Notes under the pieces: model-generated | Told to the model about the DNA's origin: nothing | Database searches by the model: none | Seen by the model: the letters and a program-made list of their open reading frames with translations, nothing else | Shown here: positions 22,189 through 60,771 of the stretch, one piece after another | How positions within the stretch are numbered: the stretch's first letter is position 1 | Layout of the letters: each line of letters begins with the position of its first letter | Position numbers and translations under genes: made by a program | Source of the DNA: Flavonifractor sp. An10 | Lineage (GTDB): Bacteria; Bacillota; Clostridia; Oscillospirales; Oscillospiraceae | Direction: 5' to 3' | Assembly: GCF_002161215.1 (NCBI RefSeq) | Contig: NZ_NFMB01000012.1 | Location: forward strand, 1 to 64,000 | DNA length: 64,000 bases

Positions 22189-22328
22189 GCGCCCCGCCTG
22201 CGGCGGGGCCCCCGAAGAGGCCGCCATAAAAACGGGCCCCGGACAGAAGTCCGGGGCCCTTGCGCGAACTTGATTACTTGTACAGCTCGACGAGACGGGT
22301 CAGGTGCTCGTAGCGGGCCTTTGCGGCC
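22189..22328 (-). repeat. Distal duplicate of the nifJ 3' end plus its terminator
   Basis: This 140-bp segment matches 22450-22590 with only about five differences. It contains the last ~18 nifJ codons including the stop (identical to the gene) and the hairpin GGGCCCCGGAC...GTCCGGGGCCC followed on the minus strand by GTTTTT. The gene-joined copy has lost that T run (GTTCTA). The distal copy therefore looks like the original downstream context, separated from nifJ by the inserted element at 22329-22449. Confidence 0.88.
22228..22262 (-). terminator. Intrinsic terminator for nifJ (distal, intact copy)
   Basis: GGGCCCCGGAC and GTCCGGGGCCC (11 bp) with loop TTCT, then GTTTTTATGG in the minus direction. 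The proximal copy at 22494-22523 has the same stem but no T run. Confidence 0.8.
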
Positions 22329-22449
22329 ATACCCCAGCGGGCCAGCGGCCCGCCGGGAGCCCCTATTTGATTTCACATGCTCGGGGCAAGTGAATTGCCC
22401 CTGCGCCGAGGTTTTGCCTTCGGCAAAACGCTTGGACGCGCCTTGCGGC
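22329..22449 (+). repeat. Three-hairpin structured element at the nifJ 3' end
   Basis: 121 bp between the two nifJ-end copies. Core: CATGCTCG, stem GGGGCAA-GTGAA-TTGCCCC, CTGCGCCGAG, stem GTTTTGCC-TTC-GGCAAAAC, GCTTGGA, stem CGCGCC-TTGC-GGCGCG. The same architecture occurs at 34105-34253 and twice at 58463-58713 with different pairing bases. Confidence 0.85.
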
Positions 22450-22535
22450 GCGCCCCGCCTGTGGCGGGGCCCCCGAAGAGGCCGCCATATAGAACGGGCC
22501 CCGGACAGAAGTCCGGGGCCCTTGCGCAAACTTGA

Positions 22536-25500
22536 TTACTTGTACAGCTCGACGAGACGGGTCAGGTGCTCGTAGCGGGCCTTTGCGGCCTCTTCGTTCT
22601 CGGCGAAGAGCTCCTTGGCGCGCTCGGGGAAGGCGCGGGTCAGGGAGGAGTAGCGGGCCTCGTTCATCAGGAACTCCTGATAGCCGCCGGCGGGGGCCTT
22701 GGAGTCCAGGGTGAAGGGGTTCTTGCCCTCGGCCTTCAGGGCGGGGTTGAACCGGAACAGGTTCCAGTAGCCGCACTCCACGGCCTTCTTCATCTCCATC
22801 TGGCAGTTGGCCATGCCGCCCTTGATGGAGTGCATCTCACAGGGGGCGTAGCCGATGACCAGGGAGGGGCCGTGATAGGCCTCGGCCTCGGTGATGGCCT
22901 TCAGGGTCTGGTTGGGGTTGGCGCCCATGGCCACCTGGGCCACGTAGACGTAGCCGTACTGCATGGCGATCTCCGCCAGGCTCTTCTTGGGCTGGGTCTT
23001 GCCGGCGGCCGCGAACTGGGCCACCTGGCCGATGTTGGAGGCCTTGGAGGCCTGGCCGCCGGTGTTGGAGTACACCTCGGTGTCGAACACGAAGATGTTC
23101 ACATCCTCGCCGGAGGCGATGACGTGATCCAGGCCGCCGTAGCCGATGTCGTAGGCCCAGCCGTCGCCGCCGAAGATCCAGATGGACTTCTTGTTCAGGT
23201 ACTCCTTCTCCTGGAGAATCTCAGCGGCCAGCTTGCAGGCGTCGCAGTCGCAGAACTGCTTGCCGGCGGCCTTCAGCTCCTGGCCGTGGGCGGCCAGCTT
23301 GGCGTCGGGGCAGGCGCACAGCTCATCCACGGTGCACAGGCCGTCCTCCAGGGCGGCGATGTAGGCCTTGGCGGCCTCGCCGTTGGCCTCGCCGTCGTTC
23401 ATGGTGTCCAGCCACTTCTGGCCGGCCTCCTTGATGGCGGCGGAGCACCAGGACACATTCAGCAGGTCGCGGGTCTTGGCGGCCAGCCGGTCGCGGATGG
23501 CCTTCTGGCCCAGGAACAGGCCCAGGCCGTGCTCGGCGTTGTCCTCAAACAGGGAGTTGGCCCAGGCGGGGCCCTTGCCCTCCTTGTTGACGGTGTAGGG
23601 AGAGGTGGCAGCCGGGCCGCCCCAGATGGAGGAGCAGCCGGTGGCGTTGGTGATGTACATCCGGTCGCCGCACACCTGGGTCACCAGGCGGGCATAGGCG
23701 GTCTCGGCACAGCCGGCGCAGGAGCCGGAGAACTCCAGCAGGGGCTGCTTGAACTGGCTGCCCTTGACGGTCTTGGTGTCCTCCATGTCGGCCTTGGGGG
23801 CAACCTTGGCCACCATGTAGTCAAACACGGCCTGCTGCTCGGCCTGGGACTCCTGGGGCTTCATCTCCAGGGCCTTGACGGGGCAGGTGCTCACGCACAC
23901 GGAGCAGCCCATGCAGTCCAGGGGGGAGATGGCGATGGCGAACTTGTACTCGCCCTTGCCCTTGCCGGCCTTGATGTCCACGATCTTGGCGGCGGCGGGG
24001 GCGTTCTTGGCCTCCTCCTCGGTGAGGGCGTAGGGGCGGATGGTGGCGTGGGGGCAGACGTAGGAGCACTGGTTGCACTGGATGCACTTGGAGGCGTCCC
24101 ACTCGGGCACGGTGACGGCCACGCCGCGCTTCTCGTAGGCGGAAGCGCCCTGGCAGAAGGTGCCGTCCTCATGGCCGTTGGCGAAGGCGGACACGGGCAG
24201 GGAGTCGCCGTCCATGCGGCCCACGGGCTCCATGATCTCCTTGACCATCTTGACGGTGGCGGCGTCGCCCTCCAGGTGCTCGGCCACGGGCTTGTCCTCG
24301 GCGGTGGCCCAGGAGGCGGGAACCTCAAACTTGTGGAAGGCGGTGGCGCCGATGTCGATGGCCTTGTGGTTCATATCCACCACGTCCTGGCCCTTCTTCA
24401 GGTAGGAGTGGGTGGCGGCGTCCTTCATGTAGCCGATGGCCTCGGTCTCGGGCATCACCTTGGCCAGGGCGAAGAAGGCGGACTGCAGGATGGTGTTGGT
24501 GCGCTTGCCCATGCCGATCTCGATGGCCAGGTCGATGGCGTTGATGGTGTAGACCTGGATGTTGTGCTCGGCGATGTAGCGCTTGGCCACGGCGGGCATG
24601 TGGTGATCCAGCTCCTCGTCAGACCACTGGCAGTTGATGAGGAACACGCCGCCGTCCTTCACGTCGCGAACCATGGGGAAGCCCTTGACGATGTAGGCGG
24701 GCACGTGGCAGGCCACGAAGTCGGCCTTGTTGATGTAGTAGGGGGCGCGGATGGGCTCATCGCCGAAGCGCAGGTGGCTGATGGTCACGCCGCCGGTCTT
24801 CTTGGAGTCGTACTGGAAGTAGGCCTGCACGTACTTGTCGGTGTGGTCGCCGATGATCTTGATGGAGTTCTTGTTGGCGCCCACGGTGCCGTCGCCGCCC
24901 AGGCCCCAGAACTTGCACTCGATGGTGCCGGGGGCCGCGGTGTTGGGGGAGGGCTTCTCCTCCAGGGAGGTGAAGGTCACGTCGTCCACGATGCCCACGG
25001 TGAACTGGCGCTTGGGCTCGGCCTTGGTCAGCTCCTCATACACGGCGAACACGTTGCTGGGCGGGGTGTCCTTGGAGCCCAGGCCGTAGCGGCCGCCGAT
25101 GATGGTGGCCTGCCGGCCGGCGTTGGCGAAGGCGGTGACCACGTCCAGGTACAGGGGGTCGCCCTGGGCGCCGGGCTCCTTGGTGCGGTCGAGCACGGCG
25201 ATCTTGGTGGCGGTGGCGGGAATGGCCTCCAGTAGCTTGTCGGCGCGGAAGGGGCGGTACAGGCGCACCTTCACCAGGCCCACCTTCTCGCCGTGGGCGT
25301 TCAGGTAGTCGATGACCTCCTCGGCCACGTCGCAGATGGAGCCCATGGCGATGATCACGCGGTCAGCGTCGGGGGCGCCGTAGTAGTTGAACAGCTGATA
25401 GTTGGTGCCCAGCTTGGCGTTGACCTTGCCCATGTACTCCTCGACAATGCCGGGGACGGCGTCGTAGTACTTGTTGGCGGCCTCGCGGTGCTGGAAGAAG

Positions 25501-33231: not shown

Positions 33232-34104
33232 TTACACCTCGAAAAAGCTCTTGATGGTGGTGGCCGTCCCCGCCTGGCACCGGCCCAGCAGCAGGAACTC
33301 CCCGCCGGGGCCGTAGAACCGGTAGACCCCGTCCGGCACGCCGGCCGGGCAGGGGAAGGGGTTGCCGTTCCTGGCCCTGGACAGGGCCCGGCCGGTGATC
33401 TCCACCGCGTCATACCCGTAGAAGCAGCCGTCCACCGGCCGGAGCAGAGCCGCGGGATCGGGGGCGGCCTGCACCGCCTCCAGCGTCACCGCGTCGGCCA
33501 GGGTGAAGCCGGCGGCCCCGGTGCGCCGCAGGGCGGACATGCACCCGCCGCAGCCCAGGGCCTGCCCGATGTCGTGGCACAGGGTGCGCACGTAGGTGCC
33601 CTTGGAGCACCGCACCCGCAGGGTGTAGGTGTCCGGCCCGGTCTGCTCCCCCGCCTCCAGGGCGTGGATGGTCACCGGCCGGGGGGGCCGCTCCACCTCC
33701 TTCCCCGCCCGGGCCAGCTCGTAGAGCTTTTTGCCGTCCCGCTTGATGGCGGAGTACATGGGGGGGATCTGGAGGATATTCCCCCGGAAATGGGCCAGGG
33801 CCCCCTCCAGCTCTTCCCGGGTGACGGACACAGGGCGCTTCTCCAGGATTTCGCCGGTGGTATCCTGGGTGTTGGTGACAACGCCCAGTTTTATCTCCGC
33901 CAGATATTCCTTTTCGGATTCACTGGCGAACTCCACCGCCCGGGTGGCCCGGCCGATGAACACCGGCAGTACGCCGGTGGCCATGGGATCCAGGGTGCCG
34001 GCGTGGCCCACCCGCTTCTCGCGGAAAATCCCCCGCAGCTTGGCGCACACGTCCATGGAAGTCCAGTCCCGGGGCTTGTCGATGATAATGATTCCGTTTG
34101 GCAT
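33232..34104 (-). CDS. truB: tRNA pseudouridine-55 synthase
   Basis: 290 residues; forms pseudouridine 55 in the T-arm of tRNAs. Motifs: GIIIIDKPRDWTSMDV at the N-terminus, KRVGHAGTLDPMATGVLPV with the catalytic Asp (about residues 33-51), and the YSAIKRDGKKLYELAR block. The gene's first 60 bases are duplicated at 34254-34313. The start used here (ATG, complement of 34102-34104) is the copy joined to the gene body; its RBS GGGAGG comes from the inserted element. The upstream copy has the stronger GGAGG but is cut off after 20 shared codons. Confidence 0.95.
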   Translation of the reverse strand: MPNGIIIIDKPRDWTSMDVCAKLRGIFREKRVGHAGTLDPMATGVLPVFIGRATRAVEFASESEKEYLAEIKLGVVTNTQDTTGEILEKRPVSVTREELEGALAHFRGNILQIPPMYSAIKRDGKKLYELARAGKEVERPPRPVTIHALEAGEQTGPDTYTLRVRCSKGTYVRTLCHDIGQALGCGGCMSALRRTGAAGFTLADAVTLEAVQAAPDPAALLRPVDGCFYGYDAVEITGRALSRARNGNPFPCPAGVPDGVYRFYGPGGEFLLLGRCQAGTATTIKSFFEV

Positions 34105-34253
34105 ACGCAGAAGCCTCCCTGTGCGCCAAGCATCGGCGCTTTTGCGCCGTCCGAGCGTTTTCGCCCCGGCGAAAACCTCGCCGCAGGCGGAATTCATTTC
34201 CGCCGAGGATGTAATAATCATAGGGTTCCCGCAGACGCGTGCGTCTGTGGGAT
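34105..34253 (-). repeat. Three-hairpin structured element at the truB 5' end
   Basis: 149 bp between the two truB-start copies. Minus-strand reading: hairpin CAGACGC-ACG-GCGTCTG, AT-rich linker, CATCCTCG, stem GGCGGAA-ATGAA-TTCCGCC, CTGCGGCGAGG, stem TTTTCGCC-GGGGCGAAAA, GCTCGGA, stem CGGCGC-AAAA-GCGCCG, then GGGAGG, which serves as the new truB RBS. Compared with the nifJ and mutL copies, each stem has different bases that still pair. Confidence 0.85.
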
Positions 34254-34313
34254 GCACACGTCCATGGAAGTCCAGTCCCGGGGCTTGTCGATGATGATGA
34301 TTCCGTTTGGCAT
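34254..34313 (-). pseudogene. Distal duplicate of the truB 5' end
   Basis: 60 bp identical to the truB start (34045-34104) except one synonymous change (ATC here, ATT in the gene). It has its own GGAGG six bases before the ATG and could be translated into a 31-residue dead-end peptide beginning MPNGIIII. It probably marks the ancestral start of truB. Confidence 0.85.
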
Positions 34314-51236: not shown

Positions 51237-54032
51237 TTACTCGCCCACCACGGCGGCGCAGCGGGGGCACAGCTCGGGGTGGTGTCCCTCGGTGCCGATG
51301 TGCTCGTTGTGGTTCCAGCAGCGGGGGCACTTGGGGGCCTCGGACAGCTTGACGGCGATGGTGCAGGGCACCAGGCAGTCCTCCATCTTCTCGCCCTCCA
51401 CGGGCCCGGTGGTGACGGTGACCTTGGAAACGATGCACAGGGTGGCCAGATCCACGCCCTCCAGGAAAGCCGCGTCGGCGGCGGAGACGGACAGGGTGAT
51501 GTCGGTGTCCTGGGCCTTCTTGAACACGCCGGCATTGCGGGCGTTCTCCAGGGCCTTGTTCACCGCGTCGCGGAGGGAGACCAGCTTGTCCCAGCGCTCC
51601 TGTCCGGCGGCGTCCAGGGCCAGCTTCTCCTCATAGCCGGGCATGTCGTTGAGCAGCACGCTCTCGGCGTCCACGCCCTTGGCGTGCTTCATGGCGTGCC
51701 AGATCTCGTCGGAGGTGAAGGCCAGTATGGGGGCGATGAGCCGGGTCATGCCGTCCAGGATGGTGTACAGGGCGGTCTGGGCGGAGCGGCGGCCGGCGTC
51801 GTCGCCGCAGTACAGCCGATCCTTGATGATGTCCAGGTAGAAGTTGGACATGTCCACCACGCAGAAGTTGTACACGGCCCGGTAGACGCCGTGGAACTCG
51901 TAGCGGTCGTACGCCTCCCGGCAGGCCTTCACCAGGTTGTTGTAAGAGGCCAGGGCGAACCTGTCCAGCTCCTCCAGCTTGTCATAGGCCACCGCGTGGG
52001 TGTCGGGGTCGAAGTCGCACAGGTTGCCCAGCATGTAGCGGGCGGTGTTGCGGATTTTCAGGTAGGCCTGGCTCAGCTGCTTCATGATGTCCTTGGAGAT
52101 GCGCATGTCCTGGGTGTAGTCGGCGGAGGCCACCCACAGGCGGAGCATGTCGGCGCCGTACTCCCTGATGACCTCGTCGGGGGAGACGGCGTTGCCCAGG
52201 GACTTGTGCATGGCCTTGCCCTCGCCGTCCACAGTCCAGCCGTGGGTGGCGATCTGGTGATAGGGGGCCACGCCGTTGACGGCGATGGAGGTGAGCATGG
52301 AGGACTGGAACCAGCCGCGGTACTGGTCGCCGCCCTCCAGATAGAGGTCGGCGGGGTACTTCAGATAGGGGCGCTCCGCGGCCACGGCGGCCCAGGTGGA
52401 GCCGGAGTCGAACCACACGTCCATGATGTCGGTCTCTTTGGAGAAGTGGGCCTTGCCGCACTTGGGGCACACGAAGCCCTCGGGCAGCAGGTCGCGGGGC
52501 TCCTTGTCAAACCAGATGTTGGAGCCGTGCTCCCGGAAGAGCCGGGCCACGTTGGCGATGGTCTCGGGGGTGACGATGTCCGCCCCGCAGTCGTCGCAGT
52601 AAAAGATGGGGATGGGCACGCCCCACACCCGCTGGCGGGAGATGCACCAGTCGGAGCGCTCGGTGATCATGGAGATCATGCGCTCCTTGCCCCACTCGGG
52701 CTTCCACTGGATGGCGTCGCAGGACTTCACCGCGGCGTCCTTGATAGCGTCCACGGAGCAGAACCACTGCTCGGTGGCCCGGTAGATGATGGGGTTCTTG
52801 CAGCGCCAGCAGTGGGGGTAGGAGTGGGTGATGTTCTCCTTGGCCACCAGGAAGCCCTCTCGCTCCAGATCCTCCACCACCATGTCGTTGCCCTTGGCGT
52901 AGAACTGGCCGTTGTAGCGCTCGTCGGTCATGACGCCCTTGGCGTTCACCGGCACGGGCACGCCGATGTGGGTCAGGCCCGCCTTGTCGTACTGCCGGCA
53001 GATGGCGAAGTCCTCGGCGCCGAAGCCGGGGGCGGTGTGGACGCAGCCGGAGCCGGCGTCCAGGGTCACGTGCTCGCCATTGAGGATCACGCTCTCCCGG
53101 TCAAAGAGGGGGTGCTTGGCACTCATCAGCTCAAACTCGCTGCCCTTGAGGGTGGCCAGCACGGTGCAGGCGGCATAGTCGATGTGGGCGGCCTTGCACA
53201 CGCTCTCGGCCAGATCCTTGGCCAGGATATACACGTCCCCGCCGGGCACCTGGAGGAGCACGTAGTCAAACTCGGCGTTGAGGCAGATGGCGTAGTTGCC
53301 GGGAATCGTCCAGGGGGTGGTCGTCCAGATCACGAAGTAGGTGCGGCTCAGATCGGTAAGGCCCCCCAGCTTGCCCTTGTCGTCCAGCACGGGGAACTTG
53401 ACGAAGATGGTGGTGCAGGGGTCGTCGGCGTACTCAATCTCCGCCTCGGCCAGGGCGGTCTGGTCGGCGGGGCACCAGTACACCGGCTTCATGCCCTTGT
53501 AGATAAGGCCCTTCTCCGCCATCTTGCCGAAGACCTCAATCTGCCTGGCCTCAAACTCGGGCAGCAGGGTGATGTAGGGGTTCTCCCACTCGCCCAGCAC
53601 CCCCAGGCGCTGGAACTGCCCGGTCATCTTGGCGATATAGCCCTCGGCGTACTCCCGGCACTTGGTGCGGAACTGGGCGGTGGTCATCTCGTCCCGCTTG
53701 ACCTTCTTGTCCTTCAGCACGGCGGACTCGATGGGCAGGCCGTGGGTGTCCCAGCCGGGTACATAGGGGGCGCAGTGGCCGGTCATGTTCTTGTGCTTGA
53801 CGATCATGTCCTTGAGGATCTTGTTCAGGGCGGTGCCGATGTGGATGTTGCCGTTGGCGTAGGGGGGGCCGTCGTGGAGGACAAACTTGGGCTTGCCCTC
53901 GTTGCGTGCCACCATCTTGTGGTACAGATCGTGGTCGTACATGGCCTGGAGCATGTCCGGCTCCCGCTTGGGCAGGCCGGCCCGCATGGGGAAGTCGGTC
54001 TGGGGCAGATGGACGGTCTGGTTGTAATCCAT
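51237..54032 (-). CDS. ileS: Isoleucyl-tRNA synthetase
   Basis: 931 residues, class I synthetase. HIGH motif in PYANGNIHIGTALNK (about residues 49-63), the CP1 editing domain, the KMSKS equivalent as GEGKAMHKSLGN (about 600; the second half HKSLGN is clear, the Met-Ser variant is unusual), the anticodon-binding domain and a C-terminal zinc site CPRCWNHNEHIG...CPRC. ATG at 54032 with AAAGGAG. Expression is controlled by an Ile-specific T-box upstream. Confidence 0.97.
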   Translation of the reverse strand: MDYNQTVHLPQTDFPMRAGLPKREPDMLQAMYDHDLYHKMVARNEGKPKFVLHDGPPYANGNIHIGTALNKILKDMIVKHKNMTGHCAPYVPGWDTHGLPIESAVLKDKKVKRDEMTTAQFRTKCREYAEGYIAKMTGQFQRLGVLGEWENPYITLLPEFEARQIEVFGKMAEKGLIYKGMKPVYWCPADQTALAEAEIEYADDPCTTIFVKFPVLDDKGKLGGLTDLSRTYFVIWTTTPWTIPGNYAICLNAEFDYVLLQVPGGDVYILAKDLAESVCKAAHIDYAACTVLATLKGSEFELMSAKHPLFDRESVILNGEHVTLDAGSGCVHTAPGFGAEDFAICRQYDKAGLTHIGVPVPVNAKGVMTDERYNGQFYAKGNDMVVEDLEREGFLVAKENITHSYPHCWRCKNPIIYRATEQWFCSVDAIKDAAVKSCDAIQWKPEWGKERMISMITERSDWCISRQRVWGVPIPIFYCDDCGADIVTPETIANVARLFREHGSNIWFDKEPRDLLPEGFVCPKCGKAHFSKETDIMDVWFDSGSTWAAVAAERPYLKYPADLYLEGGDQYRGWFQSSMLTSIAVNGVAPYHQIATHGWTVDGEGKAMHKSLGNAVSPDEVIREYGADMLRLWVASADYTQDMRISKDIMKQLSQAYLKIRNTARYMLGNLCDFDPDTHAVAYDKLEELDRFALASYNNLVKACREAYDRYEFHGVYRAVYNFCVVDMSNFYLDIIKDRLYCGDDAGRRSAQTALYTILDGMTRLIAPILAFTSDEIWHAMKHAKGVDAESVLLNDMPGYEEKLALDAAGQERWDKLVSLRDAVNKALENARNAGVFKKAQDTDITLSVSAADAAFLEGVDLATLCIVSKVTVTTGPVEGEKMEDCLVPCTIAVKLSEAPKCPRCWNHNEHIGTEGHHPELCPRCAAVVGE

Positions 54033-54048
54033 GGGTGGTTCTCCTTTG

Positions 54049-54130
54049 TAAATTGATAATGAATAATTGAAAATGGAGAATGGGCGGTTAGGCGGCGGGG
54101 TTCGGGCCGACACACAGGTCGGCCCCTACG
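54049..54130. repeat. Half-copy of an AT-rich repeat and a palindrome in the ileS leader
   Basis: AATTGATAATG...GAAAATGG (54049-54080) resembles one end of the inverted-repeat element at 55239-55458. It is followed by GGGCCGACACACAGGTCGGCCC-CTACG (54105-54130), a GTAGGGGC-class palindrome. Both lie between the T-box terminator and the ileS RBS. Confidence 0.6.
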
Positions 54131-54148: not shown

Positions 54149-54443
54149 CAAAAAGCGCCCCTGCCTCACAAAGAGACAAAGGCGCAAACCTCTGCGGTAC
54201 CACTCTCATTGCCGCGGACGTGCCGCGGCCCCTCGACGGCCGGTAACGGGGCCAGGCGTCCGCACCTACTGGGCAAAGAGGCCGTTGGGGCGGCGGCTCG
54301 GAGGTGATCTTCCCGGCCCGCCCTGTCCGCCTTGCACCAAAAACGGCGGCTCTCTGCACAGGGTTGGGGGCGGTACTCGTCCTCGTCACAGCGTTTGGCT
54401 GGATAAAATCACTCGGAGGCGCGGTTTTCCGCGTCTCCGAGTA
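54149..54443 (-). promoter_or_regulatory. T-box riboswitch, isoleucine specific
   Basis: Minus strand, in order: a 5' hairpin CTCGGAG-ACGCGG-AAAA-CCGCG-CCTCCGAG (54442-54412), GACGAGGACGAGTAC (54387-54373), AGAGAGCC, specifier GGGAAG-ATC-ACC with ATC (Ile) at 54308-54306, the T-box sequence GAGTGGTACCGCAG (about 54206-54193) and a terminator GCGCCTTTGTCTC...GAGGCAGGGGCGC with TTTTTG (54185-54150). It senses uncharged tRNA-Ile, matching ileS. Confidence 0.94.
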
Positions 54444-58383: not shown

Positions 58384-58462
58384 CTACGCCCTCCCGAACC
58401 GCTTCTCCAGCTGCTGGCGGGTCAGCTCTATCGCCACCGGCCTGCCATGGGGACAGTATTTG
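58384..58462 (-). pseudogene. Distal duplicate of the mutL 3' end
   Basis: 79 bp matching the last 26 mutL codons including a stop. It differs from the gene's own end (58714-58792) at seven positions, all synonymous: CAT/CAC, GAG/GAA, CTG/TTG, CGC/CGG, AGG/AGA, GCG/GCA and TAG/TAA. The distal copy has the GC-rich codons usual in this genome, which suggests it is the original gene end. Confidence 0.88.
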
Positions 58463-58713
58463 CTCCCCGGCGGTCAGGCCCGCCGGGGGCCCCAAATATT
58501 TTTGCATCCTCGGCCGGAGTGAATCCGGCCTGCGGCAAGGTTTTGCTCCGCAAAACGCTTGGACGCGCCAAAGGCGCGATGCGCGGTCAAATGCGGTCAG
58601 GCCCGCCGGGGCCCCAAATATTTCTGCATCCTCGGGGCAAATGAATTGCCCCTGCGGCAAGGTTTTGCTCCGCAAAACGCTTGGACGCGCCAAAGGCGCG
58701 ATGCGCGGTCAAA
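58463..58713 (+). repeat. Two tandem three-hairpin structured elements at the mutL 3' end
   Basis: Two ~122-bp units in direct repeat. Unit 1 core from 58505: CATCCTCG, stem GGCCGGA-GTGAA-TCCGGCC, CTGCGGCAAGG, stem GTTTTGC-TCC-GCAAAAC, GCTTGGA, stem CGCGCC-AAA-GGCGCG. Unit 2 core from 58627 is the same except the first stem, which is GGGGCAA-ATGAA-TTGCCCC. The units lie between the two copies of the mutL end. Each is preceded by GCGGTCAGGCCCGCCGGGG and an AT-rich AAATATTT linker. Confidence 0.88.
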
Positions 58714-60771
58714 TTATGCTCTCCCGAACCGCTTCTCCAGCTGCTGCCGGGTCAATTCTATCGCCACCGGCCTGCCGTGGGGACAGTATTTGACCGCGCC
58801 GGACATGACGGCCTCGGCCACCTTGTACAGCTCGCCGGGGCTGTTCTTCTGTCCGCCCTTGATGGCCGCCTTGCAGGCCATGGTGTGGAGCAGGGCGTCC
58901 CGGGCGGCGTCCGGATCGGCGGAGCCGCCGGTGAGCAGCTTTCCCGCCAGCTCCCCCAGCACGTCGGGGATCTCCCCGGCGGCCACGTCGCTGGGGGCGG
59001 CCCGGACGATCAGCGTCCCGCCGCCGAAGTCCTCCGCCTCAAAGCCGAACCGCTCCAGCAGGGGCAGCTGGGCCAGCAGCGCCGCCCCCTCCTCCGCCGG
59101 CGGGGTGAACACCACCGGCTCCAGCAGGGCCTGCACCATGGGCTGGTAGCCCTCGGCCTTCAGGCGGTCGAAGTTGAGCCGCTCGTGGGCGGCGTGCTTG
59201 TCGATGAAGAGCACCTTGTCCCCCTGCTCCACGATGATGTAGGTGTTCAGCACCTCCCCCGCCATGCGCCAAGGCTCGGGCTCGGCGGCGGGTTCCGGCT
59301 CAGGGGCGGGGGCGGGCACGCTCCCCTCGTCCGGGGCCGCGCTTTGGGCCGGGGCGGCCCCTGCCGGGGAATCGGGTGCATCCTCCTGCTGTAGGGGCCG
59401 GACATCTGGCCGGCCCGCCGCCGGGGGCGCCGGTTTCGCCGGGGGCGCGGTGAAGTCGCGGAGGGGCAGGGCCTCCTGAACGGGGGAACGGCGCGCCGGG
59501 GTCGTCGCGCCCCACGCCGGGCCGCCGAGGGCGGCGGCCCCGGACGGGGAATCGGCCGCGTCCTCCCGCTGCAGGGGCCGGACACCCGGCCGGCCCGCCG
59601 CTTCGGCCGCCGGTTTCGCCGGGGGCGCGGTGAAATCGCGAAGGGGCAGGGCCTCCTGGACGGGGGAACGGCGCGCCGGGGTCGTCGCGCCCCACGCCGG
59701 GCCGCCGCCCTCCGCAGACAGGGTTGACACAGGGCGCGCCGGGGCCGGTTTCCCGTCGTCCAGGGTGAGGGCGGGCCGGGTGTGATCCCCCTCCAGGGTG
59801 GACTTGACGGCGTAGTACACCGCGTCAAAGACCTTCTTGTCGCTGCCGAACTTGACCTCCTGCTTGGTGGGGTGGACGTTCACGTCCACGGCGTTGAGCT
59901 TGGTCTGCAAATGGAGCACGCAGCCGGGGAACCTGCCCACCATCTTCTGGTTGGCGTAGGCCTCCTCCAGGGCGGCCATCATGGTGCGGCTCTTGACGTA
60001 GCGGCCGTTGACAAAGAAGTGCTGGTACCCTCTCGTGCCCCGGCAGCAGGTGGGCAGGGTGACAAAGCCGGTGACCGCCATGTCCTCGCCGGAGCCCTTC
60101 ACCGCCTTGTACCCCAGGGCCATGTCCCGGCCCAGCACGGCGTAGAGGGCGGACTGGAGCTGCCCGTCGCCGGGGGTGAGCAGCTCCTGCTTCCCGTCCC
60201 GGAGGAACTTGACGCTCACCTCCGGGTGGGACAGGGCCACCCGCTGCACCATGGCGAAGCAGGCCGCCCCCTCGGCGGCGTCCTTCTTCATGAATTTCAG
60301 CCGGGCGGGGGTGTTGTAGAACAGATCCCGCACCACCAGGGTGGTGCCCCGGGGGCAGCCGGCCTCCTCCCGGCTCACCACCGTGCCCCCCTCCAGGGAC
60401 AGGGCGGCGCCCAGCTCCTCCTCCGCCGTGCGGGTGAGCAGCTCGATGCGGGACACGGCGGAGATGGCCGCCAGGGCCTCCCCCCGGAAGCCCAGGGTGC
60501 CGATGGCCTCCAGATCGTACTCGGTGCTCAGCTTGCTGGTGGCGTGGCGGAGGAAGGCGGTGGGGGCCTCGTCATAGGCGATGCCGCAGCCGTTGTCGGT
60601 GACCCGGATCAGGCTCATGCCGCCGTGCTGGATCTCCACCGTCAGGGTGTCCGCCCCGGCGTCGATGGCGTTCTCCATGAGCTCCTTCACCACCGACGCG
60701 GGGCGCTCCACCACCTCGCCGGCGGCGATCAGATCCGCCACATGGGGGTCAAGTTGTTGGATGTGGGGCAT
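58714..60771 (-). CDS. mutL: DNA mismatch repair protein MutL
   Basis: 685 residues. MutL couples MutS recognition to strand incision. N-terminal GHKL ATPase: ENAIDAGADT, DNGCGI, GFRGEAL. C-terminal endonuclease-type dimerisation domain: DKHAAHERLNFD (canonical DQHAxxE with Lys for Gln), ACKAAIKGG and CPHGRP near the end. The linker (about residues 356-475) is two 60-residue repeats (59345-59524 and 59525-59704), Pro/Ala/Arg rich, encoded by sequence shared with intergenic palindromes. ATG at 60771. Located downstream of mutS and a CPBP protease gene. Confidence 0.96.
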   Translation of the reverse strand: MPHIQQLDPHVADLIAAGEVVERPASVVKELMENAIDAGADTLTVEIQHGGMSLIRVTDNGCGIAYDEAPTAFLRHATSKLSTEYDLEAIGTLGFRGEALAAISAVSRIELLTRTAEEELGAALSLEGGTVVSREEAGCPRGTTLVVRDLFYNTPARLKFMKKDAAEGAACFAMVQRVALSHPEVSVKFLRDGKQELLTPGDGQLQSALYAVLGRDMALGYKAVKGSGEDMAVTGFVTLPTCCRGTRGYQHFFVNGRYVKSRTMMAALEEAYANQKMVGRFPGCVLHLQTKLNAVDVNVHPTKQEVKFGSDKKVFDAVYYAVKSTLEGDHTRPALTLDDGKPAPARPVSTLSAEGGGPAWGATTPARRSPVQEALPLRDFTAPPAKPAAEAAGRPGVRPLQREDAADSPSGAAALGGPAWGATTPARRSPVQEALPLRDFTAPPAKPAPPAAGRPDVRPLQQEDAPDSPAGAAPAQSAAPDEGSVPAPAPEPEPAAEPEPWRMAGEVLNTYIIVEQGDKVLFIDKHAAHERLNFDRLKAEGYQPMVQALLEPVVFTPPAEEGAALLAQLPLLERFGFEAEDFGGGTLIVRAAPSDVAAGEIPDVLGELAGKLLTGGSADPDAARDALLHTMACKAAIKGGQKNSPGELYKVAEAVMSGAVKYCPHGRPVAIELTRQQLEKRFGRA
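59345..59704. repeat. In-frame 180-bp tandem duplication in the mutL linker, carrying intergenic-type repeats
   Basis: Two 180-bp units. Each contains a GGGGCCGGACA...GGCCGGCCC palindrome and a GGCGCGCC-GGGGTCGT-CGCGCCCCAC unit, both otherwise found between genes. The length (60 codons) keeps the reading frame. Confidence 0.85.

What the first reader, a model, noticed from the sequence alone, without database searches (positions are those of the whole stretch)
58463..58713. Three-hairpin element family with compensatory changes: a candidate undescribed structured mobile element
Four copies (22329-22449, 34105-34253, two at 58463-58713) share the order CATCCTCG, stem 1 with a constant TGAA loop, CTGCGG, stem 2, GCTTGGA or GCTCGGA, stem 3. 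Stem 1 arms are GGGGCAA/TTGCCCC, GGCCGGA/TCCGGCC and GGCGGAA/TTCCGCC. Stem 2 arms are GTTTTGC/GCAAAAC, GTTTTGCC/GGCAAAAC and TTTTCGCC/GGGGCGAAAA. Stem 3 arms are CGCGCC/GGCGCG and CGGCGC/GCGCCG. Paired changes with fixed loops imply function as RNA or as folded single-stranded DNA. Variable-length flanking duplications would fit a copy mechanism such as target-primed or template-switch insertion; that is speculation.
Basis: partly seen in the sequence, partly recalled or inferred. Interest (0 to 1): 0.85.

Follow-up and report, generated by a model that had tools for sequence, protein, structure and literature searches.

The report
Guided repeats at bacterial gene ends
A family of short, folded, protein-free DNA elements sits at the ends of conserved bacterial genes, and most copies carry a stretch of about eleven letters complementary to the exact spot in the gene where they were inserted, which suggests a mobile element that finds its target by base pairing.

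Summary
The four window copies belong to a family with 55 copies in this genome, found in 20 of 20 genomes of the genus and 21 others of 119 searched. Compensatory changes support the fold; no Rfam family matches it at gathering score. Two features define it. (1) It sits between two copies of a gene end (median 67 bp); sister species hold empty sites with one copy. The copies differ mostly at third codon positions, so one probably came from another lineage. (2) Behind the hairpins lies a segment complementary to the junction of repeat and gene: score 10 or more in 111 of 139 copies, against 1.1% of cross-gene controls. Between species it follows changes in the host target at -6 to +4 (41 of 47; 9 of 11 genes) but not further out (6 of 70). 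I read it as a guide of about 11 nt for insertion or homing at one site per gene. TnpB, reverse transcriptase, Y1 and IS110 proteins are each absent from most congeners. The effector is unknown.

The parts
58385..58462 (.). TL, outer copy of the 3'-end repeat of the gene read as mutL
   Evidence: 78-bp direct repeat, 92.3% identical to 58715-58792; 6 of 6 coding differences synonymous
58463..58592 (+). element copy 1: S0 58463-58493, S1 58512-58530, S2 58536-58561, S3 58564-58578
   Evidence: model hit 89.6 bits
58581..58592 (+). guide-like segment X' GCGCGGTCAAAT of copy 1
   Evidence: reverse complement of 58788-58799
58593..58714 (+). element copy 2 of the tandem array; X' at 58703-58714
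   Evidence: 91% identical to copy 1; model hit 85.5 bits
58715..58792 (.). TR, gene-side copy of the repeat: the end of the intact ORF 58714-60771 (-), read as mutL
58788..58799 (+). target X (ATTTG|ACCGCGC) across junction J between 58792 and 58793
   Evidence: complement of X'; same J in G014 and G016, 15 other loci read have one T and no element
22231..22328 (.). TL, outer copy of the end of the 1211-aa ORF read as pyruvate:ferredoxin oxidoreductase, with a terminator-like hairpin
   Evidence: 98-nt repeat, 99% identical
22329..22492 (+). element copy, X' CGAAGAGGCCGC at 22474-22485; a truncated older copy seems to end at 22189-22230
   Evidence: the match scored 10 (GGCCTCTTCG), two more bases by eye
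22493..22590 (.). TR, gene-side copy; target X 22585-22596, J after 22590
34254..34313 (-). TL: copy of the start of the gene read as truB, with its upstream RBS-like sequence
   Evidence: 60-nt repeat, 98%
34105..34253 (-). element copy at the truB 5' end; its tail carries an RBS-like sequence next to the ATG; X' is the complement of TGTGCGCCAAGC at 34120-34131
34045..34104 (-). TR: start of the intact truB; target X 34038-34049, J between 34045 and 34044

Best explanation
This is a family of protein-less mobile elements that insert at one exact site (J) inside the end of a particular gene, directed by an element-borne guide of about 11 nt. Anatomy, on the element strand: outer gene-end copy TL | S0-S1-S2-S3 hairpins, guide X' (complementary to about J-6 to J+5), short tail, gene-end copy TR | gene body. 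The unit that moves would be hairpins + guide + tail + gene end. Inserted at J it leaves the host gene whole, because the carried gene end replaces the displaced one, which stays behind as TL. The target X is restored by each insertion, so tandem arrays T-E-T-E-T can form. Shown: family, folds, T-E-T anatomy, empty sites, guide-target complementarity and its tracking between species, same J in different species. Inferred: that X' acts as a guide for insertion or homing, that the unit moves between species, and whether it acts as RNA or folded single-stranded DNA. Unknown: the nuclease, ligase or polymerase, and how a new gene is colonised. One fitting but untested scheme: X' pairs with the top strand, the bottom strand is nicked at J, and its 3' end is extended on the unit.
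For: X' complementary to its own target, score >=10: 34 of 41 own-genome copies vs 1.1% of cross pairs; 29 of 38 copies of other genomes vs 2.9%, controls there including the same gene in other species; pooled 111 of 139 vs 1.06% of 3392 cross-gene controls, and >=12 in 82 of 139 vs 0.06%. Matches straddle J (median -8 to +5). Over 51 pairs of orthologous insertions X' follows the host's changes at -6..+4 in 41 of 47 cases, in 9 of the 11 gene clusters with such a change. Same J in mutL of 3 of 18 loci (15 empty) and truB of 5 of 16 (10 empty, 1 unresolved), and in truB of Vescimonas fastidiosa. TL/TR differences at codon positions 73/71/352, 359 synonymous vs 137. truB: element 97.5% identical between G016 and G001 while the gene body is 78.8%. 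In 2 of 5 truB bearers (G016, G008) TR begins ATGGCTAACGG while TL keeps ATGCC, as the four empty sites printed do. Beyond the outer end of T the tail is unlike the native flank (25% identity, n=122).
Against: No effector found. 53 of 192 copies have no recognisable T, and 28 of 139 with T score below 10. Over positions -9..-1 X' sides with TR 9 times, TL 8, neither 6, and was not located in 23 copies; inside -5..-1 TR leads 5 to 1. The outer limits of the guide are less sharp than the raw counts say: of the 16 misses at -7, 6 are truB pairs in which the script placed X' in stem 3 (seen on checking), leaving 0 of 10; at -6 only 1 of 4 tracks. 35 pairs were skipped and the pairs are not independent: two gene clusters give 21 of the 41. 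Same-gene elements are on average 83.4% identical, gene bodies 85.7%, and only 34 of 109 pairs have the element more alike than the gene, so horizontal spread is clear only for some loci. 12 of 110 T pairs are identical, and third-position differences are lower near J (0.099 vs 0.137-0.170) but low again beyond 75 nt (0.102), so a simple donor model is not fully fitted. No transcript or movement has been observed.
Confidence: 0.55

Rival explanations
1. X' is a by-product, not a guide. A replication or repair polymerase folds back at J, copies about 11 nt of the target as an inverted repeat, switches to the element and back (template switching), and quasi-palindrome correction later keeps X' and X alike.
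For: Inverted repeat plus direct repeats is what fold-back template switching can leave; X' and X lie on one strand, a T length apart; arrays fit slippage between T copies.
Against: Tracking stops outside about -6..+5 (0 of 8 at -8, 0 of 10 usable at -7, 0 of 5 at +6), and the same J recurs in different species. A by-product should vary in length and place.
Confidence: 0.2
2. X' and X pair in the transcript for a regulatory purpose (a helix that encloses the start or stop codon), and the elements were spread by ordinary homologous recombination in the gene ends.
For: The pairing encloses a gene terminus; the tail at truB carries an RBS-like sequence; compensatory tracking is what a selected helix would show.
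Against: The element is antisense to the gene in 102 of 123 classifiable cases and sense in 21, so no common RNA role; the helix is centred on the edge of the duplication, which regulation does not explain.
Confidence: 0.15
3. An ordinary non-autonomous transposon (MITE-like) mobilised by an unnoticed transposase, with unusually long target duplications.
For: High copy number, empty sites, direct repeats.
Against: Duplications of mostly 30-130 bp that tend to end at codon boundaries and differ at synonymous sites; a 3' end complementary to each target; TnpB, Y1, IS110 and RVT_1 not listed for G078 and G101.
Confidence: 0.07

Closest known systems
IS110/IS1111 elements with bridge RNA or seekRNA (recalled)
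   Same: element-borne non-coding sequence that pairs with the insertion target over about a dozen bases, crossover inside the paired stretch
   Different: no recombinase in the element; guide is one contiguous antisense stretch; gene ends duplicated; IS110 protein in 9 of 20 genus genomes, not listed for G078 and G101
Group II introns, retrohoming by EBS-IBS pairing (recalled)
   Same: structured element whose own bases pair with the target around the insertion point; site-specific homing; some copies sit behind tRNA terminators
   Different: no gathering-score Rfam match of the element, about 150 nt only, inserted with a gene-end duplication, no RVT_1 match in 13 of 20 genus genomes
IS200/IS605 and REP/RAYT elements (recalled)
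   Same: hairpins and short guide sequences that recognise cleavage sites by base pairing; small non-autonomous copies
   Different: guides of about 4 nt there (recalled), about 11 here; no long duplications there; Y1 transposase in 7 of 20 genus genomes, not listed for G078 and G101
TnpB omega-RNA (recalled)
   Same: scaffold followed by a 3' guide
   Different: no strongly conserved motif beside the target; TnpB in 6 of 20 genus genomes, none in the own genome
Homing elements and ICEs that carry a gene end to restore the target gene (recalled)
   Same: insertion inside a gene end with a replacement end supplied
   Different: no endonuclease or integrase gene in the element; 38 gene clusters among 41 copies of one genome, most with their own guide

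Membership tests
Known RNA family (Rfam 15) | match at or above the curated score | tested here: not met
   only a T-box at 54169-54398 in the window; lax search of four loci gave three matches, all below their gathering scores: mir-431, mir-138, Clostridiales-2
MITE of a classical DNA transposon | terminal inverted repeats | tested here: inconclusive
   at a minimum of 20 nt no inverted pair joins the two element ends (the pairs found are terminators, X'/X, or have an arm outside the element); shorter ones not tested; the 3' end is target-specific
MITE of a classical DNA transposon | short target duplication of fixed length | tested here: not met
   T median 67 bp, 5-95% 32-126
Group II intron or other retroelement | reverse transcriptase in the genome | tested here: not met
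   RVT_1 in 7 of 20 genus genomes; none in G006 (24 element matches) and not listed for G078 and G101
IS110 / bridge RNA | IS110-type recombinase in the genome | tested here: not met
   9 of 20 genus genomes, not listed for G078 and G101
IS110 / bridge RNA | two separate guides for the two strands of the target | tested here: not met
   one contiguous complement across J; the definition is recalled
IS200/IS605 or REP/RAYT | Y1 transposase in the genome | tested here: not met
   7 of 20 genus genomes, not listed for G078 and G101
TnpB omega-RNA | TnpB in the genome; motif beside the target | tested here: not met
Guide-directed mobile element (what it works like) | guide-target complementarity that covaries | tested here: met
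Guide-directed mobile element (what it works like) | guide needed for insertion | not testable with these tools
   needs an experiment

The most novel reading that the evidence does not exclude
A new kind of mobile element: a protein-less, structured RNA or single-stranded DNA with its own guide of about 11 nt that homes into the ends of conserved genes in related species, carries a replacement gene end so that the host is unharmed, restores its own target, and relies on host or unrecognised enzymes. It would be a natural, harmless gene drive whose guide keeps up with synonymous drift of its target.
Probability: 0.4. Interest if true: 0.95.

Novelty: categorically new. Interest (0 to 1): 0.9.

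Why it matters
If true, a guide-directed insertion system exists that does not appear to need any of the four enzyme families tested (TnpB, reverse transcriptase, Y1 transposase, IS110 recombinase), is small (about 150 nt plus a gene end), is naturally reprogrammed for dozens of genes, and leaves its targets intact. It would add a kind of mobile element and possibly a new guided DNA-joining chemistry, and it makes a question directly testable: what joins the hairpin end to the gene at J.

Tried and rejected
Rejected: chance hairpins (controls); Rfam families; TnpB, reverse transcriptase, Y1 and IS110 as required partners (distant relatives below the thresholds and gaps in assemblies remain possible); a TnpB- or Cas-type motif beside the target: none seen, only a preference for C at -1 (49 of 77), T at +1 (38) and C at +2 (47). 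Rejected: local target duplication followed by decay of one copy, because the copies differ mostly at synonymous sites. The first frame assignment was wrong (spurious long ORFs in GC-rich DNA) and was redone by codon usage. X' regenerated from the outer copy TL: not supported inside the guide, 5 to 1 for TR, but undecided over the wider stretch. Four 'phage' records with the element looked at first like small single-stranded DNA phages; the three whose ORFs I listed read by eye as bacterial chromosome pieces (prfC-, spoIIE- and tatD-like genes), so they were dropped; the fourth (L333) was fetched but not read. Plasmid hit: one, an 861-kb Vescimonas replicon, kept. Literature: six search listings seen; no paper opened; nothing like this in the listings, but only open PMC papers were searched.

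Led nowhere: search for an autonomous copy among 25 copies without T or with a doubtful one. It showed instead a class behind tRNA genes (a tRNA upstream on the same strand in 8 of the 13 loci scanned).

On the required check I reran the tracking test with its single events. It gave the same number of pairs and the same totals, showed that six of the misses at -7 were misplacements of X', and gave the count by gene.

Full report
What is there. The window lies in a 3.88-Mb genome of 15 contigs. Each lies between two copies of a gene end: mutL (78 bp, two elements in tandem), the gene read as pyruvate:ferredoxin oxidoreductase (98 bp) and truB (60 bp). Gene names here and below are read by eye from translations printed, except where a record is annotated.

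The fold. 24 copies from this genome were aligned. A named structure of 21 pairs (stem 1 with its outer pairs, stem 2 as CAAG-G-TTTTGCC...GGCAAAA-CG-CTTG) has 96.8% of cells paired, 66 cells changed on both sides (shuffles 25, sd 3.8), and falls to 31-50% when slid. Stem 3 and the 5' hairpin S0 are visible in most copies printed but were not scored. The model R1 finds 55 copies at E<=2.9e-9 in this genome. Of 119 genomes 41 have a match: 20 of 20 of the genus (own included), 18 more of the family, 3 of two other families. G078 and G101, of another family, have 91 and 69 matches with weaker scores and a variant stem 2. The Rfam scan of the window at gathering score gives only a T-box.

The duplication. 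Of 192 copies examined (45, 52, 95), 139 have a direct repeat T that ends at the element. The left copy ends as a rule about 33 nt before the model start, i.e. at S0. T has a median of 67 bp, 5-95% 32-126. In 17 of the 139 the repeat found runs into the element end, as in arrays. Dropped before counting: 21 copies near contig ends, 13 duplicates, and 27 of the 156 rows, weak, cut off or repeated, that I did not enter. For the own genome I entered 45 of the 63 rows (array repeats and weak rows left out), for the next set 52 of the 57 rows. In 102 copies the gene side is a gene 3' end, with the element antisense to the gene; in 21 a 5' end, with the element in sense; 16 are unclear. The outer edge of T is within 3 nt of the stop or start codon in 58 and within 6 nt in 77 of 123. 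Beyond that edge the two flanks are unrelated (25% identity). The two T copies differ at codon positions 1, 2, 3 in 73, 71 and 352 places, 359 synonymous and 137 not. A local duplicate that decayed would not look so; two coding ends that diverged in different lineages would.

Empty sites. In mutL 3 of 18 loci read (own included) have the element and 15 have one T and no element; in truB 5 of 16 have it, 10 have one T, and one (L191) showed neither. J is at the same place in the bearers, but for an ambiguity of a few bases where the element and the gene begin alike. In truB of G016 and G008 the gene-side copy begins with ATGGCTAACGG, as in G001, while the outer copy begins ATGCC, as in the four empty sites printed; in the other three bearers both copies begin alike. 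The annotated Vescimonas fastidiosa record has the same arrangement at the same truB junction, between the DHH phosphoesterase gene and truB, with a 9-nt complement read by eye.

The guide. Reading I saw that the variable 3' end of each element holds the reverse complement of the junction between the gene-side T and the gene body. Scored as an ungapped match (+1/-2) of the element end to 44 nt around its own J, 34 of 41 own-genome copies reach 10, against 1.1% when paired with other loci. In other genomes 29 of 38 reach 10 against 2.9% (controls there include the same gene in other species). In the pooled set it is 111 of 139 against 1.06% of 3392 controls from other gene clusters, and 82 of 139 against 0.06% at score 12. 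Pairs of insertions at the same J of the same gene in different genomes show X' following the host sequence: with the differing positions masked when X' is located, 41 of 47 differences at -6..+4 are matched on both sides. Per position: -6 1 of 4, -5 6 of 8, -4 3 of 4, -3 5 of 5, -2 1 of 1, -1 3 of 3, +1 9 of 9, +3 5 of 5, +4 8 of 8, +5 1 of 1; then -7 0 of 16, -8 0 of 8, +6 0 of 5, +7 1 of 5, and 6 of 70 further out. Looking at the single events, six of the 16 at -7 are truB pairs in which the script had placed X' in stem 3, so 0 of 10 is the fair count there; read by eye those truB pairs do track. 51 pairs were used and 35 skipped because X' was not located with the mask. The pairs share species and genes: tracking is seen in 9 of the 11 gene clusters that have a difference at -6..+4, and two clusters supply 21 of the 41. 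Examples: lepA-like CACCC with GGGTG and TACGC with GCGTA; argH-like acg with CGT and acc with GGT.

Spread. Elements of the same gene and J are 83.4% identical on average (109 pairs), of different genes 72.4 (sd 4.8). At truB the elements of G016 and G001 are 97.5% identical, the genes 78.8%. Over the 109 pairs the gene body is on average at least as well conserved as the element (85.7%), so vertical descent with co-evolution may explain part of the data, and horizontal spread is shown only for some loci.

Partners. TnpB, RVT_1, Y1 and IS110 models were each run over 119 relatives. They occur in 6, 7, 7 and 9 of 20 genus genomes, and G078 and G101 are in none of the lists of genomes with a match. 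Distant homologues below the thresholds and incomplete assemblies remain possible escapes.

A second class. Among 25 copies without T or with a doubtful one, several lie directly behind tRNA genes, with the tRNA's terminator hairpin in the place of S0 (a tRNA on the same strand upstream in 8 of 13 loci scanned). I found no guide in most of these. They may be source genes or old insertions.

How it may work. The final strand reads up-TL-S0..S3-X'-tail-TR-gene. X' spans J, so in an empty site it would pair with the strand on both sides of the cut. The unit also carries X itself at the end of TR, so one molecule could hold both strands of the target. Insertion at J of hairpins + guide + tail + gene end gives the observed product, regenerates X, and explains arrays. 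Whether the unit is RNA or folded ssDNA, and what cuts and joins, is not known. Novelty rests on the tests above and on six paper listings, none opened.

Noticed in passing
54169-54398: T-box leader (RF00230, 101.7 bits) on the minus strand, upstream of the 958-aa ORF 51237-54113.
   Followed up: no
L097, L104, L123, L124, L080, L081, L083, L088: Copies of the element downstream of tRNA genes; the tRNA terminator hairpin seems to take the place of hairpin S0 and in most no guide was seen.
   Followed up: partly
L330, L331, L332 (MT838853, MT838705, MT839134): GenBank 'Bacteriophage sp.' scaffolds from human faeces, marked UNVERIFIED, that hold the element but whose ORFs read by eye as bacterial chromosomal genes; they look mislabelled.
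   Followed up: partly
L012 about 1590-2000: An element copy whose S0 side is replaced by what looks by eye like an insertion sequence with a transposase ORF.
   Followed up: no
L188 (G014 truB): The stem 1 loop of this copy is enlarged by an insert that itself looks able to fold.
   Followed up: no
G078 contig C12 9234-9673: In another family the element occurs in tight arrays (here four copies of 118-bp period) and up to 91 matches in 1.9 Mb, with a different stem 2.
   Followed up: partly
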